The position numbers and the translations under genes were made by a program. A model generated the notes under the pieces. That model did not search any database. It was given only the letters and a program-made list of their open reading frames with translations, and was not told where the DNA came from. From a virus, in IMG/VR virus record IMGVR_UViG_3300037485_001071, positions 1 to 31,132 of that record: 31,132 bases of DNA. One strand, written 5' to 3'. Position 1 is the stretch's first letter; each line of letters begins with the position of its first letter. This document shows, in pieces, positions 12,173 to 28,756 of this stretch.

Positions 12173-12197
12173 ATATATAAATTTTAATTGGTTACAA

Positions 12198-12285
12198 GTT
12201 AAAAATAGCAATGGTAGAACCTTTCATTATACTACATTTTGATGTTTTTACATCCAGTCCCTTGTGCACAGAGACATTGCTATTT
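12198..12285 (-). terminator. Closing helix and T-run of the RNA unit
   Basis: AAATAGCAATG and its complement 61 nt away form an 11-bp perfect helix whose 3' strand on the minus strand runs directly into TATTTTTAA. The enclosed 61 nt hold two smaller hairpins (GATGT/ACATC and GTAG/CTAC). It can serve both as the closing helix of the RNA and as its terminator. Confidence 0.5.
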
Positions 12286-13040
12286 AATAAGAGGCTTGGT
12301 TATCCTCTTCCACCGTTTAGCAGGTTAAAGCTATAAGTTCTGTACACCATCATACCTAAGAACTTATAAGTGGTATGATTGTATAATCCCTCTGTACTCA
12401 ATTGTAATACTATATGTACTTCACTTATTCCATACAATAGAATATATTACAGTCTGCACATGTTAATTCATGGTTCTTTGAACTGTATATTTTTATTACA
12501 ACTGCCTGACCTTGGGAATCAGGAATGGTACATTAATACCTAATAGTATATTATTAGGATTAGTTATTTATCCTACATGGGAATGGTACTTCTACCTTTC
12601 ATTCATAAGCCAATATACTGTTATAGTTGTTACCTATACTTATTTTCACCTGCAATTGCCACTATAGCAAAGCTCCTATTGATCAGATAGGATTTTTATT
12701 TTAAATTTTAAATATTCCGGAAATACTAATAATACTTCTCTTATAGAGAGAGATACTAATAGTAATAGTTCATACATAGAGTATAGAATTCTTGTTTATT
12801 TAGCTATATAACATATATTATATGACTTCATTCCAAATCTGTTAGTACTCTTACAAGTATAGATATGGTTAGAGTTTGTCACTCAAACATCCTGTAACCC
12901 TTATGCACACTCAATCACAGAACTTTTATCAAAATATTTTATGATACTTTTATGATGACCGTAACCTATTGTTACAGCCATAGAATATGTTTGGGAGACC
13001 CTTTGGGTGACCGCAAATACCCAAAAGTATTATCTTTTTA
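12198..13040 (-). ncRNA. Candidate large structured non-coding RNA (about 840 nt)
   Basis: No credible reading frame exists on either strand across this stretch, yet it is crowded with stems. Perfect pairings (plus-strand coordinates): 12203-12213 with 12275-12285 (11 bp); 12241-12245 with 12250-12254; 12289-12294 with 12304-12309; 12332-12341 with 12359-12368 (10 bp); 12349-12356 with 12372-12379 (8 bp, interlocked with the former); 12403-12409 with 12445-12451; 12505-12509 with 12519-12523; 12539-12545 with 12552-12558; 12674-12679 with 12687-12692; 12874-12878 with 12884-12888; 12892-12898 with 12971-12977; 13002-13008 with 13019-13025. A copy of the array promoter box lies just upstream (13046-13057) and the 11-bp helix is followed by TTTTT, so leftward transcription is likely. 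Size and ornateness recall phage GOLLD/ROOL RNAs; membership is not shown. Confidence 0.6.
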
Positions 13041-13045
13041 TTGTG

Positions 13046-13057
13046 CTTTTAAATACA
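13046..13057 (-). promoter_or_regulatory. Array promoter-like box, RNA unit
   Basis: Minus strand TGTATTTAAAAG, one base different from the array consensus TGTATTTATAAG. It lies directly before the structured RNA region and behind the hairpin at 13062-13081, the same order as at 13654. Confidence 0.55.
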
Positions 13058-13061
13058 TTTT

Positions 13062-13090: not shown

Positions 13091-13126
13091 AACTGTTACT
13101 TTTAGGTATAAAAACTGTTACTTTTA
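13091..13126. repeat. 14-bp direct repeat, 22-bp period
   Basis: AACTGTTACTTTTA occurs at 13091-13104 and 13113-13126, exactly two helical turns apart, upstream of the RNA-unit promoter box. This arrangement is typical of a regulator binding twice on one face of the helix; it is not associated with a gene. Confidence 0.5.
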
Positions 13127-13140
13127 CAAATTCTACATTT

Positions 13141-13181
13141 TGTAACTACTTGGTTTTCAATACCAAAGTCACATAGTTACA
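13141..13181. repeat. Long inverted repeat
   Basis: TGTAACTA (13141-13148) pairs with TAGTTACA (13174-13181), and inside it TTGGT (13150-13154) pairs with ACCAA (13062+100 to 13166), forming a two-part stem of 8 and 5 bp. It lies between the terminator of the 125-aa gene and the direct repeats. It could be an operator or an RNA hairpin. Confidence 0.45.
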
Positions 13182-13193
13182 CACGGTGGATAC

Positions 13194-21880: not shown

Positions 21881-23830
21881 ATGGACAAAAGTCAACCCAA
21901 TCAAAATTTTTTTTGTAATGATGGGTTAACTACGCCTATTTCATGTGAACTTCAATATACATGTCCTGATCCTGAACAATGTTCAGAAATATATGATGCA
22001 GATTGTGTTATATATTTTGGAGAAAATATTAATTGCCAAGAAACTACAATAATAGCTCAATATACTTCAGTAGCACAAGGTTTAACTGAAATAGTTGATT
22101 GGGTTTGTACATTAGGACCTGTAGGTACACAAGGAGTTCAAGGAGTTCAGGGTATTAGTGGTGCATTTGCAGCACAAGGAATACAAGGTACTACTGGAAT
22201 ACAAGGTTTTAATGGAATACAAGGTGTTCAAGGTGTACAAGGTGATTTAGGAGTACAAGGTTTTAATGGTCCACAAGGAGTTCAAGGATTTGTAGGTATA
22301 GGAACTCAAGGATATCAAGGTCCTCAAGGTATCCAAGGAATACAAGGAATTCAAGGATTCATTGGAATTGGAACCCAAGGTTATCAAGGACTTCAAGGAA
22401 TAATAGGAATACAAGGATTTACTGGTGGTGTTGGTATTCAAGGTATACAAGGAGAAATTGGTATAAATGGTGCACAAGGCAGTATAGGTTCTCAAGGAAA
22501 TACAGGTAATGCAGGTTCTCAAGGTACTACAGGAACAACAGGTGGAACTGGAGCGCAAGGTTTTACAGGAACTACTGGAACTCAAGGAATACAAGGAATT
22601 ACTGGAATAGGAATTCAAGGCACACAAGGTATTCAAGGTATACAAGGACCACAAGGTATTATTGGAAATCAAGGATTAATTGGTATACAAGGTATACAAG
22701 GTAATATTGGAAATACAGGTAGTCAAGGAACACAAGGTTCACAAGGTTCTCAAGGAACTCAAGGTAATCAAGGTACAACTGGTAGTGGTACTCAAGGTTC
22801 ACAAGGAACACAAGGAACGCAAGGAATACAAGGTATTCAAGGCATAACTGGTAGTGGTACACAAGGCACAACTGGTAGTCAAGGAACACAAGGTATAAAT
22901 GGTAATAATGGTTCTCAAGGAATACAGGGAATACAAGGTATAACTGGAATAGGCACACAAGGTATACAAGGATTAACTGGTTTACAGGGTATCCAAGGCA
23001 TACAAGGAATACAGGGTCCTCAAGGTGCAAATGGTAATAATGGATCTCAAGGCATACAAGGTTTTACTGGTAGTCAAGGCATACAAGGCATACAAGGCAT
23101 ACAAGGCATACAAGGCATACAAGGAATTCAAGGAATTCAAGGCAGACAAGGAACAATTGGAACTGGCATACAGGGAACACAAGGTATTCAAGGAACACAA
23201 GGAATACAGGGAATAAGTATACAAGGTGTGCAAGGAATTCAAGGTGCAGATGGTGGTGGTGGTGGAAAAAATAAATCATTACTTATTGCTAATAGTTCTA
23301 ATTATTTTTTTCAAACACAAATCTCTAGTACAAATCCTTATTTATATTATGTTGGAAATGGTGCATGTGGTTGGAATGGTTGTGACTGGAACATAACAAT
23401 ATTAACTGATAGTGGTATTAGTATAAGTGAAATTTGTCCAGTTTATACTCATCTTGGAATTTCAAATCCTTATGATTTAATAATTGGAGATACTTTAATT
23501 TTATGTGGTTCTTCAACTAGAGACGATTCAGCACCTGTTCCTTTACTTTGGTTTGTTGGTTACTATGATTGCAGTGATCCTTTAAATGCTAATAATGCTT
23601 ATGATATTACTATTTTATTTAGTGGTAATCAATTGTATTCAGGAGAAACTAGTTGTAATACTGGTACTAGTGGTGGTTCAGGTGTTTATCTTTGTTTTAG
23701 TGATAGTTATATTTTAGCAAATCCTTTAAATAGTTGTGATATTAAATTTGTTATAGGTTGGACTCTTCCTAATGTAACTAAAAATAATGATGTAAAAATA
23801 AGTTGGACTCTTAAAGTTAATCCAATATAA
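21881..23830 (+). CDS. Collagen-like tail fibre protein (649 aa)
   Basis: Three parts. Residues 1-81: a Cys-rich head (about 9 Cys, e.g. CELQYTCPDPEQCSEIYDAD). Residues about 82-460: a collagen-like run of some 125 Gly-x-y triplets, mostly GIQ, GVQ, GTQ, GSQ and almost Pro-free. It is broken at intervals by GxGTQG/GxGIQG steps. Residues 461-649: a globular beta-rich tip with Cys residues (CGWNGCDWNITILTDSG). The triple-helical rod probably spans tail base to tip. The DNA holds 9-bp tandem repeats that can slip. Confidence 0.88.
   Translation: MDKSQPNQNFFCNDGLTTPISCELQYTCPDPEQCSEIYDADCVIYFGENINCQETTIIAQYTSVAQGLTEIVDWVCTLGPVGTQGVQGVQGISGAFAAQGIQGTTGIQGFNGIQGVQGVQGDLGVQGFNGPQGVQGFVGIGTQGYQGPQGIQGIQGIQGFIGIGTQGYQGLQGIIGIQGFTGGVGIQGIQGEIGINGAQGSIGSQGNTGNAGSQGTTGTTGGTGAQGFTGTTGTQGIQGITGIGIQGTQGIQGIQGPQGIIGNQGLIGIQGIQGNIGNTGSQGTQGSQGSQGTQGNQGTTGSGTQGSQGTQGTQGIQGIQGITGSGTQGTTGSQGTQGINGNNGSQGIQGIQGITGIGTQGIQGLTGLQGIQGIQGIQGPQGANGNNGSQGIQGFTGSQGIQGIQGIQGIQGIQGIQGIQGRQGTIGTGIQGTQGIQGTQGIQGISIQGVQGIQGADGGGGGKNKSLLIANSSNYFFQTQISSTNPYLYYVGNGACGWNGCDWNITILTDSGISISEICPVYTHLGISNPYDLIIGDTLILCGSSTRDDSAPVPLLWFVGYYDCSDPLNANNAYDITILFSGNQLYSGETSCNTGTSGGSGVYLCFSDSYILANPLNSCDIKFVIGWTLPNVTKNNDVKISWTLKVNPI
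23075..23137 (+). repeat. 9-bp tandem repeats in the collagen gene
   Basis: CAAGGCATA occurs five times in a row (23075-23119), followed by two CAAGGAATT units (23120-23137). Each unit codes one Gly-Ile-Gln triplet, so copy changes of this unit keep the frame and alter rod length. Confidence 0.9.
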
Positions 23831-23861: not shown

Positions 23862-26078
23862 ATGAATAATTTATGCCAACTTGCTCTTAAAAATGGAGGA
23901 TCTGTAAACTATTTAATACTACCATCAAATATTACTGAAGGACTAGGACTCACAAATCCATCTATACTTATTATAGATGGACAGTATATTCTTAATCTTA
24001 GACATGTTCAATATGCACTATATCATAGTGAAGGAACTCAAAAATTTCAATCTATATGGGGTCCCTTAGCATATCTTAATCCAGAAGATGATCTTACATT
24101 AACCACTACTAATTATTTATGTGAATTAGATATAAACACATTAAGTATAGATAATTTTAAAAAAGTTAATACTGCAAATTTAGATAAAAAACCAGTATGG
24201 GAATTTATTGGATTAGAAGATGCAAGAATAGTTTATTGGGATAATGATTTATGTCTTACAGGTGTGAGAAGAGATACCAAATCTGATGGAGAAGGTAGGA
24301 TGGAAATATCTAAAATTGTATCTAAAGAAATTGAAAAAGAAAGATTTAGAATTGAACCACCAACAAAATCATATTGTGAAAAAAATTGGATGCCAATTAT
24401 TGACATACCTTATCATTATGTTAAATGGACTAATCCTACAGAAGTTGTAAAAGTTGATCCTAAAAAAGGAACATCAAAAACTGTATATTTAGTAAAACAA
24501 GATATTAAATTTCCTAGAGATATTAGAGGAGGATCACAAGTTATTCCATACCGTAATATGTATATTGCACTTACACATGAAGTAGATTTATGGAAAAATG
24601 AACAAGAAAAAAAAGATGCTCAATACTATCATAGATTTATTGTATGGGATAAAAATTGGAAAATAATACATTATTCTAATGAATTTAAATTTATGACTGG
24701 TGCTATTGAATTTACATGTGGTTTAGCATTTGATGGTTTAAATTTTATAATTCCATTTGGTTTTCAAGATTCTACAGCTTATGTTTTAAAAATTCCTGCA
24801 AATGTAATTGAAGATATTTGTAATTTTTCAGAAAAAATACCTTTAACAATTTCTAAAGGAATAACACCACATAAATTAGAATCATTTATTAATGATCCAT
24901 ATAATGCTGATAAAACATTTGAACTTGCAGAATTTTATTTTACACAAGGTCATTATGCTTCAGCAATGTCATTTTATCTTAGAACTGCTGAGTATTCTGA
25001 AATATCTGATAAAACATATGAAGCTTTATTAATGGTAGCTAAAAGTTTATCTACACTTACAAGAAGACCTATTACAGAACTTGGATTATGGTTAAATGCA
25101 CTTAATTTTAATCCAGAAAGACCTGAAGCATATTTATATATAAGTGAGTATTATGAAAAACAAAAAAGTTATCATCAAATGTATAGTTATGCTATTATGG
25201 GATTAAGAGTACAGGCAAATGCAAAAACAATAACTTCTAATCTTAATTATGAAGATGGTTATCAACTTAAATTTCAAAAAGCAGTTGCTGCTTGGTGGAT
25301 TGGTAAAGGAAGTGAAGCTAGAGAAATATTTTTTGATTTAGTAATTGATTCTAATATACTATCTGATAAATATAAAAAACTAGTTCAATCTAACATAACT
25401 TCATTAGGTTCTGGACCAGATCCATTCTTAAGATATCATAAAGGTTTACATAATCAGTTAATATATAAGTTTCCGGAATCAGAAACTATTATAAAAAACT
25501 TTTCTCAAACATATCAAGATATATTTACTCTTACTATGCTTAATGGTAAAAAAAATGGAACATATTTTGAAATTGGTGCAGCAGATCCATTTCATGGTAG
25601 TAATACAGCACTATTAGAACAATTTGGATGGACTGGTACTTCATTAGAAATATTAGAACATGAAGTAACTAAGTTTAAACAACAAAGAAAAAATGATGTT
25701 ATATTATGTGATGCTACAAAGTTTGATTATTCTATACTTAAAGGTCACATTGACTATTTGCAAGTTGATTGTGAACCACCAGAAACTACATATAATATAC
25801 TTACAATGTTACCTTGGGATCAGTGTACATTTGGAGTAATAACATATGAACATGATCATTACACAGATGTAACACAATTATTTAGAAAAAAGTCTAGAAA
25901 ATTTTTATTAAGTAAAGGATATTTATTGGTTGTAAGTAATATATCTCCAAATGATGATTGTCCTTATGAAGACTGGTGGGTACATCCAAAACATATAGAT
26001 AAAGATATAATTAAAAAAATGTTAGCAGATGATGATTCAATTAAAAATGCAGAGAAATATATGTTTGGAAAGTTGTAA
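23862..26078 (+). CDS. Three-domain protein: propeller-like, TPR-like, FkbM methyltransferase (738 aa)
   Basis: Residues 1-320 look like a five-bladed propeller of the GH43/GH130-related or mimivirus-type glyco-enzyme class (WEFIGLEDARIVYWDNDLCL at 113-132, EKNWMPI at 173-179, IRGGSQVIPYRNMYIALTHE at 221-240). Residues 345-500 contain TPR-like helical pairs (FELAEFYFTQGHYASAMSFY; PEAYLYISEYYEKQKSYHQM). Residues 545-700 are an FkbM-type SAM methyltransferase with TYFEIGAADPFHGSNTALLE (motif I, 567-586) and YLQVDCEPPE (632-641). It may modify a glycan on the virion or host. Located in the tail block, which is unusual. Confidence 0.72.
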   Translation: MNNLCQLALKNGGSVNYLILPSNITEGLGLTNPSILIIDGQYILNLRHVQYALYHSEGTQKFQSIWGPLAYLNPEDDLTLTTTNYLCELDINTLSIDNFKKVNTANLDKKPVWEFIGLEDARIVYWDNDLCLTGVRRDTKSDGEGRMEISKIVSKEIEKERFRIEPPTKSYCEKNWMPIIDIPYHYVKWTNPTEVVKVDPKKGTSKTVYLVKQDIKFPRDIRGGSQVIPYRNMYIALTHEVDLWKNEQEKKDAQYYHRFIVWDKNWKIIHYSNEFKFMTGAIEFTCGLAFDGLNFIIPFGFQDSTAYVLKIPANVIEDICNFSEKIPLTISKGITPHKLESFINDPYNADKTFELAEFYFTQGHYASAMSFYLRTAEYSEISDKTYEALLMVAKSLSTLTRRPITELGLWLNALNFNPERPEAYLYISEYYEKQKSYHQMYSYAIMGLRVQANAKTITSNLNYEDGYQLKFQKAVAAWWIGKGSEAREIFFDLVIDSNILSDKYKKLVQSNITSLGSGPDPFLRYHKGLHNQLIYKFPESETIIKNFSQTYQDIFTLTMLNGKKNGTYFEIGAADPFHGSNTALLEQFGWTGTSLEILEHEVTKFKQQRKNDVILCDATKFDYSILKGHIDYLQVDCEPPETTYNILTMLPWDQCTFGVITYEHDHYTDVTQLFRKKSRKFLLSKGYLLVVSNISPNDDCPYEDWWVHPKHIDKDIIKKMLADDDSIKNAEKYMFGKL

Positions 26079-27814: not shown

Positions 27815-28756
27815 ATGTCTACTGACATAAATTTAAATAAAATTTTAAGTGTTCCTGGAAGCACAAGCATAAGATATGTTGTACCAACATATAATAAAAA
27901 ATTATTTATTTCAGTTTGGGAAACACAAACTAATGGTGAATTTATCATGTTACCCTATGATGGAGGAGGTACTTACAACGGAACTATAGATTGGGGAGAT
28001 GGTAGTACAGATATCAATGATGGTAGTGTTATTGGACACACTTATTTAAGCAAAGGAGTTTATACAATAACAATAAATGGAATTGTTATAGGATGGAATT
28101 TTAGTAATCTAGGTGGTTCACCTTATATTATTTCAGTTGTACAATGGGGACCATTACAATTAGGATCTGATTTAGGTTTTTATTTTCAAAATTGCCCTAA
28201 TTTAGATTTATCTACAGTATCGGATAAACTTAACTTAGCAGGAATAACAAATATGGTTGGTATGTTTGAAGATTGTTCTTCTATTACAATTATTAATAAC
28301 ATAAATTTGTGGATCACTTCAGCAATTACTACTATGAATGGCATGTTTTATAATTGTTCATCATTTAATCAAACATTAATATTTGATACATCACTAGTAA
28401 ATGATATGAGTCTTATGTTTTATAATTGTACAATATTTGATAAACCATTACTATTTAATACATTATCAGTAAATCTTATGAATGACATGTTTTATGGTGC
28501 TACTGCTTTTGACCAAGATATAGGTTTTTGGGATGTAACATTTCTTGGACAAGCAAATGGTTTTATGGGAACTAAAACTCCTGCAACTTTCTCTACTACC
28601 AATTTAGATGCTATCTACAATGGATGGAGTGCAACAGCAGCACAAACTGGAGTTTTTATAGACTTTAATGGTGCAAAATATTCACCTGCAAGTATAGCAG
28701 GTAGATCAGTTTTAACAGTAACTAAATTATGGAATATATCAGATGGTGGACTTTAA
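27815..28756 (+). CDS. PKD-like plus BspA/DUF285-repeat adhesin (313 aa)
   Basis: Residues 40-90 contain GTIDWGDGSTDINDGSVIGH, then TYLSKGVYTITING, the WGDGS...HTY...G.YT signature of PKD domains. Residues 145-235 hold leucine-rich-like DUF285 units built on GMFxDCSSx, GMFYNCSSFNQTLI, MSLMFYNCTIFDKPLL and DMFYGATAFDQDIG. These BspA-type repeats are typical of surface adhesins. The likely role is binding a host surface structure, perhaps as the fibre tip. It is 2 nt after the preceding gene. Confidence 0.82.
   Translation: MSTDINLNKILSVPGSTSIRYVVPTYNKKLFISVWETQTNGEFIMLPYDGGGTYNGTIDWGDGSTDINDGSVIGHTYLSKGVYTITINGIVIGWNFSNLGGSPYIISVVQWGPLQLGSDLGFYFQNCPNLDLSTVSDKLNLAGITNMVGMFEDCSSITIINNINLWITSAITTMNGMFYNCSSFNQTLIFDTSLVNDMSLMFYNCTIFDKPLLFNTLSVNLMNDMFYGATAFDQDIGFWDVTFLGQANGFMGTKTPATFSTTNLDAIYNGWSATAAQTGVFIDFNGAKYSPASIAGRSVLTVTKLWNISDGGL

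What the first reader, a model, noticed from the sequence alone, without database searches (positions are those of the whole stretch)
12198..13057. About 850-nt candidate ornate non-coding RNA with its own promoter box
No gene fits on either strand, yet at least twelve perfect stem pairings of 5-11 bp are visible, bounded by a promoter-like box on the right and an 11-bp closing helix plus T-run on the left. Phages are known to encode very large structured RNAs of this size (GOLLD, ROOL), so this could be a member or a new class. The stems are seen directly; the transcript and its class are inferred.
Basis: partly seen in the sequence, partly recalled or inferred. Interest (0 to 1): 0.88.

Follow-up and report, generated by a model that had tools for sequence, protein, structure and literature searches.

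The report
Twister-like ribozyme in phage non-coding RNA
The gene-free stretch in this uncultured phage carries a small, strongly conserved RNA fold, present in more than 120 phage sequences and absent from RNA catalogues and cultured phages, that looks like an unrecorded version of the self-cutting 'twister' ribozyme and probably trims phage messenger RNAs.

Summary
In detail: 12198-13057 has no gene, the minus strand folds better than all 20 shuffles, a repeated promoter box stands at 13059-13045 and a terminator-like hairpin at 12285-12203. It is not GOLLD, ROOL or any other Rfam family. Comparison shows a mosaic rather than one rigid 850-nt RNA. Its centre (minus strand, 12535-12388) is a compact RNA domain found in more than 120 IMG/VR phage contigs and in no searched bacterial genome or cultured phage. 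In 28 aligned copies 97.5% of pair cells are canonical and 17 of 23 pairs show double changes. Invariant U|AA, UUCCCAAGG and GAGGG blocks match the twister ribozyme core. Three tests back this. Loops found by their changed middle base were all CAC, and all 14 have the compensating GUG. P1 pairing is enriched only in the twister register. Conservation starts at the predicted cleavage site. Differences: five P2 pairs instead of four, a nine-nt L4, always a P5 hairpin, no clear T2, weak P1, no hit to the two Rfam twister models tested. Best reading: a divergent twister-like self-cleaving ribozyme that cuts phage transcripts between genes. Cleavage itself is inferred, not shown.

The parts
12388..12535 (-). 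Twister-like core, U1 = 12535 to G83 = 12388; predicted cleavage between U 12535 and A 12534
   Evidence: 28-copy alignment: 97.5% paired cells, 17/23 pairs with double changes; 122 copies; the window copy alone folds into the predicted structure; model R1 finds it in the window at E 3e-8
12528..12532 (-). P2 5' strand UGUAC, pairs with 12393-12397 GUACA
   Evidence: covarying types GUAC/GUAC, GCAC/GUGC, GUAU/AUAC, GCAU/AUGC
12505..12523 (-). P4 hairpin CCUGA / UCAGG with L4 loop UUCCCAAGG (12518-12510)
   Evidence: P4 pairs have the highest mutual information of all column pairs; loop invariant apart from T1 variants
12514..12516 (-). T1 pseudoknot 5' side CCC, pairs with GGG 12388-12390
   Evidence: loops changed in the middle base are all CAC with GUG opposite (14 of 14 distinct copies); CCU/AGG once
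12399..12504 (-). P5 hairpin: 11-bp stem (12504-12494 / 12409-12399) with a variable insert
   Evidence: stem pairs covary; motif length 66-297 nt across copies
12388..12392 (-). GAGGG: proposed catalytic G (12392), A, and T1 GGG
   Evidence: GAGGG in 120 of 122 copies; one AAGGG, one GAGUG with a compensating loop
12690..12912 (-). Conserved leader element 'b'
   Evidence: homologues in about 40 loci, often directly before a small ORF; no supported consensus structure
13114..13193 (-). Conserved element 'x', adjacent to b in other phages; separated from it here by an insert carrying the box
   Evidence: nhmmer and blastn matches in about 35 loci
13045..13059 (-). Promoter-like box AATGTATTTAAAAGC
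   Evidence: one of ten copies of the box on the minus strand
12536..12689 (-). Lineage-specific segment between leader and core
   Evidence: found only in L005 among held loci
12203..12285 (-). 3' hairpin with 11-bp closing stem, followed by U-run 12205-12201: terminator-like
   Evidence: found in L001, L034, L036 with two double-change pairs; replaced by a clear terminator hairpin plus TTTTT in L053 and L060
12005..12172 (-). Downstream small gene (55 aa) after the unit
   Evidence: ORF; homologous gene at the same place in L002, L034, L053, L060

Best explanation
The minus-strand RNA of 13045-12198 carries a divergent twister-like self-cleaving ribozyme (12535-12388). The transcript folds into P2, P4 and P5 around a three-way junction. 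The P4 loop CCC docks on GGG in the internal loop (T1) and so places A 12534 and G 12392 at the phosphate between U 12535 and A 12534. The RNA is then cut there, leaving a cyclic phosphate on the upstream leader part and a 5'-OH on a downstream RNA that begins with a stable fold. In other phages the same domain lies between small genes, so its likely role is to cut polycistronic phage mRNA and protect the new 5' end. In this window the small gene that follows the leader in many relatives is absent, so leader, ribozyme and 3' hairpin form one long untranslated unit. Shown: the fold, T1, the position and spread. Inferred: cleavage, transcript, mRNA processing.
For: Covariation. T1 test: a search for L4 loops with the middle base changed, blind to the partner, returned only CAC loops, all 14 distinct copies with GUG opposite; one CCU/AGG turned up separately. 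P1 excess only in the register expected for twister: position -1 with 84, -2 with 85, U1 skipped; z 5.0 and 8.4, all registers off that diagonal at most about 2. The twister papers give the same spacing: U5-A6 cleavage, G48, U4-G53, U3-A54, U33-A50, A34-A49 (PMC6154101, PMC5408937). Sharp conservation edges at U1 and G83; U1 replaced by C in 3 of 122 copies while A2 A3 never vary, as described for twister (less conserved U, highly conserved A). Stem P1 is dispensable for twister cleavage (PMC5408937), which fits a weak P1. Nearest genes on both sides on the same strand for 85 of 122 copies; 35 copies have an ORF start within 100 nt downstream.
Against: Rfam twister-P1 and twister-P5 models find nothing in 15 records each, even at E 10. 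P2 has five pairs, while four is stated for twister and a change is suggested to disturb the active site. L4 has one extra U; T2 (GC in L2) is not recognisable. 40 of 119 copies have no P1 pair next to the core; the window copy has only two. No cleavage or transcript data. Searches used the 5' core pattern, so the invariance of positions 3-26 is partly by construction.
Confidence: 0.75

Rival explanations
1. The same fold is a non-catalytic element: a stable 5' cap-like or nuclease-resistant structure, or a protein or ligand binding site in phage leaders, which has kept or converged on a twister-like core without cleaving.
For: P1 is weak or absent in many copies, P2 is longer than in twister, T2 is unclear; many copies lie shortly before start codons.
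Against: The residues that serve catalysis in twister (U|AA, G79) are kept with no tolerance for A2 or A3 and one G79 exception in 122 copies; P1 appears exactly in the twister register.
Confidence: 0.2
2. One giant ornate RNA of GOLLD or ROOL type spanning the whole 850 nt, acting as an RNA-only assembly.
For: Long, gene-free, phage-borne, own box and terminator-like end; minus strand folds better than shuffles.
Against: No Rfam match; no tRNA in the window; flanking segments are swapped, deleted or replaced by genes in relatives; two close relatives lack the core.
Confidence: 0.04
3. A ligand-controlled ribozyme or attenuator: the variable P5 hairpin senses a ligand, or the GGGG of L1 switches between T1 and a terminator hairpin.
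For: P5 varies from a few to more than 200 nt; in L003, L053 and L122 GAGGGG is the 5' arm of a terminator hairpin followed by TTTTTT.
Against: The P5 insert is not conserved, unlike a sensor; terminator overlap in only 3 of 119 copies.
Confidence: 0.06
4. Decayed coding sequence with chance stems.
For: AT-rich sequence yields many chance stems; in relatives a gene follows the leader.
Against: Covariation and conservation of the core across more than 100 contigs.
Confidence: 0.01

Closest known systems
Twister ribozyme, type P1 (Rfam RF03160; also RF02684 and RF03154)
   Same: Order P1-L1-P2-L2-P4-L4; U|AA opposite GAGGG; CCCAAG in L4; T1 between L4 and L1 with the same spacing; P1 starting one nt before the cleavage U and right after GAGGG
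   Different: P2 of 5 bp, not 4; L4 of 9 nt with an extra U; P5 always present, P3 never; L2 CA in place of the conserved GC so T2 is unclear; P1 weak; not detected by the two Rfam models tested
GOLLD and ROOL RNAs
   Same: Long phage-encoded non-coding region
   Different: No sequence or structure match in Rfam; no tRNA nearby in the window; a mosaic, not one conserved fold
Twister-sister ribozyme
   Same: Has a P4 terminal loop said to resemble that of twister (PMC6154101)
   Different: Twister-sister is described as unable to form the twister pseudoknot and cleaves C-A (PMC6154101, PMC5660989); here T1 covaries and the site is U-A

Membership tests
Twister ribozyme | Scissile step: less conserved U followed by highly conserved A in L1 | tested here: met
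   U in 119 and C in 3 of 122 copies; A2 A3 in 122 of 122. Cleavage itself not tested
Twister ribozyme | Conserved guanine in L1 (G48 in env22) followed by A and the T1 partners | tested here: met
   GAGGG 120, GAGUG 1, AAGGG 1 of 122
Twister ribozyme | Pseudoknot T1 between L4 and L1, three Watson-Crick pairs | tested here: met
   CCC/GGG in nearly all; CAC/GUG in 14 of 14 distinct changed loops; CCU/AGG in one
Twister ribozyme | Pseudoknot T2: conserved GC in L2 with the two bulged L4 nucleotides | tested here: inconclusive
   L2 has invariant C9 A10 and L4 invariant G25 G26; no covariation, and Y8 pairs with R74 instead
Twister ribozyme | Stem P2 of four Watson-Crick pairs | tested here: not met
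   stem present, but five pairs, 4-78 to 8-74
Twister ribozyme | Stem P4 with terminal loop L4 | tested here: met
   five-pair stem, strongest covariation; loop one nt longer than the twister loop as recalled from the literature
Twister ribozyme | Stem P1 next to the cleavage site | tested here: inconclusive
   significant excess only in the twister register (z 5.0 and 8.4), yet 40 of 119 copies have no adjacent pair
Twister ribozyme | Match to Rfam twister models | tested here: not met
   RF03160 and RF02684: none at E <= 10 in 15 records each; all-family cmscan of the smallest copy lists no twister; RF03154 not searched on its own
Twister ribozyme | Self-cleavage in vitro | not testable with these tools
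   needs bench work
GOLLD / ROOL / OLE / group I intron | Match to the Rfam covariance models | tested here: not met
   whole window, no match at gathering scores; region, none of these families up to E 10
GOLLD / ROOL | Often near tRNA islands | tested here: not met
   no tRNA in the window

The most novel reading that the evidence does not exclude
Probability: 0.3. Interest if true: 0.88.

Novelty: new variant of a known kind. Interest (0 to 1): 0.74.

Why it matters
If it cleaves, self-cutting RNA is a standing part of gene expression in a common group of uncultured, probably Bacteroidota-infecting phages. It would give a biological setting, intercistronic mRNA processing, for ribozymes whose association with phage genes is described as unexplained (PMC10085705). 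It would also show how far the twister scaffold can drift while its catalytic core stays fixed. The question is directly testable: the smallest natural form has 66 nt.

Tried and rejected
Known RNA families: cmscan of the window, the region and relatives gave nothing meaningful. blastn of the whole region, of an L017 homologue and of two 42-nt core variants in the 'phages' collection gave no credible hit. Bacterial and archaeal genomes: none. Three gut Crassvirales records: no match with R1, without a positive control. Consensus folding of the leader: 0 pairs on 20 divergent sequences; on nine closer ones 24 pairs with a positive (unfavourable) covariation term. Attempt to fetch true bacterial twisters as a positive control by pattern: nine hits, of which six were checked and none scores as twister. 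Gp23 search to place the phages in the T4 group: none, and no control rang. Link to one fixed neighbour gene: none; neighbours fall into many small clusters. A first context count used a faulty pattern and was replaced.

Full report
The observation. Between the minus-strand gene 13611-13234 and the small ORF 12172-12005 no protein gene fits. The minus strand of 12190-13057 folds at -203.7 kcal/mol against -180.7 +/- 8.1 for 20 shuffles; the plus strand is not remarkable. The box at 13059-13045 belongs to a set of ten boxes, AATGTATTTATAAGC and variants, that stand before nearly every minus-strand unit from 13.0 to 16.7 kb. The 11-bp helix closes an 83-nt hairpin followed by a U-run, a terminator-like end.

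Relatives. The neighbouring gene led to five IMG/VR contigs with the same gene order. In them the first part of the region is conserved while the middle is exchanged or missing. A 16-nt piece of the middle then hit contigs with no other similarity, and a consensus pattern gave 54 contigs. None is in 84,980 bacterial and archaeal genomes and no credible match is in 50,697 phage records.

The core. Twenty-eight divergent copies, with the P5 loop shortened, give 97.5% canonical cells and 17 of 23 pairs with changes on both sides. The covariation score is 0.486, against at most 0.13 for slid versions and 0.18 for shuffles. In 119 copies the top mutual-information pairs are those of P2, P4 and P5. 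The window copy folds into exactly this structure on its own: P2 12532-12528/12397-12393, P4 12523-12519/12509-12505, P5 12504-12494/12409-12399. Conservation begins at U1 (12535) and ends at G83 (12388), with little on either side. Because the searches used the 5' core pattern, the invariance of positions 3-26 is partly by construction; that of U1, A2 and GAGGG is not imposed by the scans, although the later collection script asked for a GAGGG-like 3' block.

Why twister-like. The invariant blocks are U-AA, UUCCCAAGG and GAGGG. The twister papers (PMC5408937, PMC6154101) describe U5-A6 cleavage, G48 and A6 as catalytic, T1 formed by L4 and L1 (U33-A50, and A34 with A49), P1 pairs U4-G53, U3-A54 and U2-A55, and dispensability of P1. 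Mapped on the core this predicts pairing of 20-22 with 81-83 and of position -1 with 84, -2 with 85 and so on. Both were tested. A search for loops with position 21 changed returned 21 contigs; in all 14 distinct copies the loop is CAC and the partner GUG. A search for a changed position 22 gave one CCU/AGG pair and two copies whose 3' part is broken or not found. A search for a changed position 20 gave two UCC/GGG copies, a tolerated U-G. For P1, excess pairing exists only on the predicted diagonal (z 5.0 for counts, 8.4 for runs). It is short, and absent in a third of copies.

Where it departs from twister. P2 has five pairs (8-74 clearly covaries), L4 has nine nucleotides, and the L2 GC that forms T2 is replaced by invariant CA. 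P5 is always present, P3 never. RF03160 and RF02684 do not match, nor does any twister model appear in an all-family scan of the smallest copy. By the rule that a failed defining feature bars filing, I do not enter it in the twister family; I call it twister-like and judge that it most likely works as twister does. Cleavage is not shown.

Surroundings. Upstream of the core, 0 to 2 kb away, about 45 loci carry a conserved leader (elements x and b; window 13193-13114 and 12912-12690), often directly followed by a small ORF. In the window's own group x and b are separated by an insert with the promoter box, and no ORF follows b. Consensus folding does not support a common structure for x-b. Downstream, the window has a 3' hairpin shared with L001, L034 and L036, with two double-change pairs; L053 and L060 have another module ending in a strong terminator. 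For 85 of 122 copies the nearest ORFs on both sides are on the same strand, and 35 copies have an ORF start within 100 nt downstream. Flanking genes are diverse. This is the pattern of an intercistronic RNA element.

Which phages. Many hits lie on contigs of 90-125 kb. One (G002) encodes a portal and a terminase large subunit whose relatives are Crassvirales and Flavobacterium or Cellulophaga phages; the listed best matches are at about 24% identity. The hosts are therefore probably Bacteroidota (inference). The window contig itself shows no terminase hit among the proteins scanned, so its placement rests on shared elements.

Mechanism proposed. Transcription from 13045 leftward; folding of P2, P4 and P5; docking of L4 on L1; attack of the 2'-OH of U 12535 on the phosphate of A 12534, assisted by G 12392; release of the leader part with a cyclic phosphate and of a 5'-OH RNA starting with the folded core. 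In multigene transcripts this would separate upstream and downstream messages. The fold and T1 are shown by covariation; transcription, cleavage and role are inferred.

Noticed in passing
window 16038-15760 (minus): A second unit without an ORF, with a perfect promoter box and a terminator; its last 109 nt are 94-95% identical to the end of the core-containing unit of L053 and L060.
   Followed up: partly
window 13193-13114 and 12912-12690; about 45 loci: Conserved leader x-b, about 300 nt, 0-2 kb upstream of the core on the same strand, often directly before a small ORF; function unknown.
   Followed up: partly
L003, L053, L122: GAGGGG of the core is at the same time the 5' arm of a terminator hairpin followed by TTTTTT: possible competition between T1 and termination.
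   Followed up: no
L073, L082, L118, L163, L025, L040: Two copies of the core about 150-400 nt apart in one region.
   Followed up: no
L126 2156; L189; L191: Core copies with the proposed catalytic G changed (AAGGG) or a broken 3' part: perhaps inactive copies.
   Followed up: no
window 13.0-16.7 kb (minus): Nearly every small gene has its own box about 23-41 nt before the ATG, and many are followed by a short terminator-like hairpin: single-gene transcription units.
   Followed up: partly
L061: Array of 16 tRNA genes on the contig that carries a core copy.
   Followed up: no
window 21881-23830, 23862-26078, 27815-28756: Collagen-like tail fibre, glycosyltransferase-like protein related to Synechococcus phage S-SCSM2R, and a DUF285 protein.
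   Followed up: no
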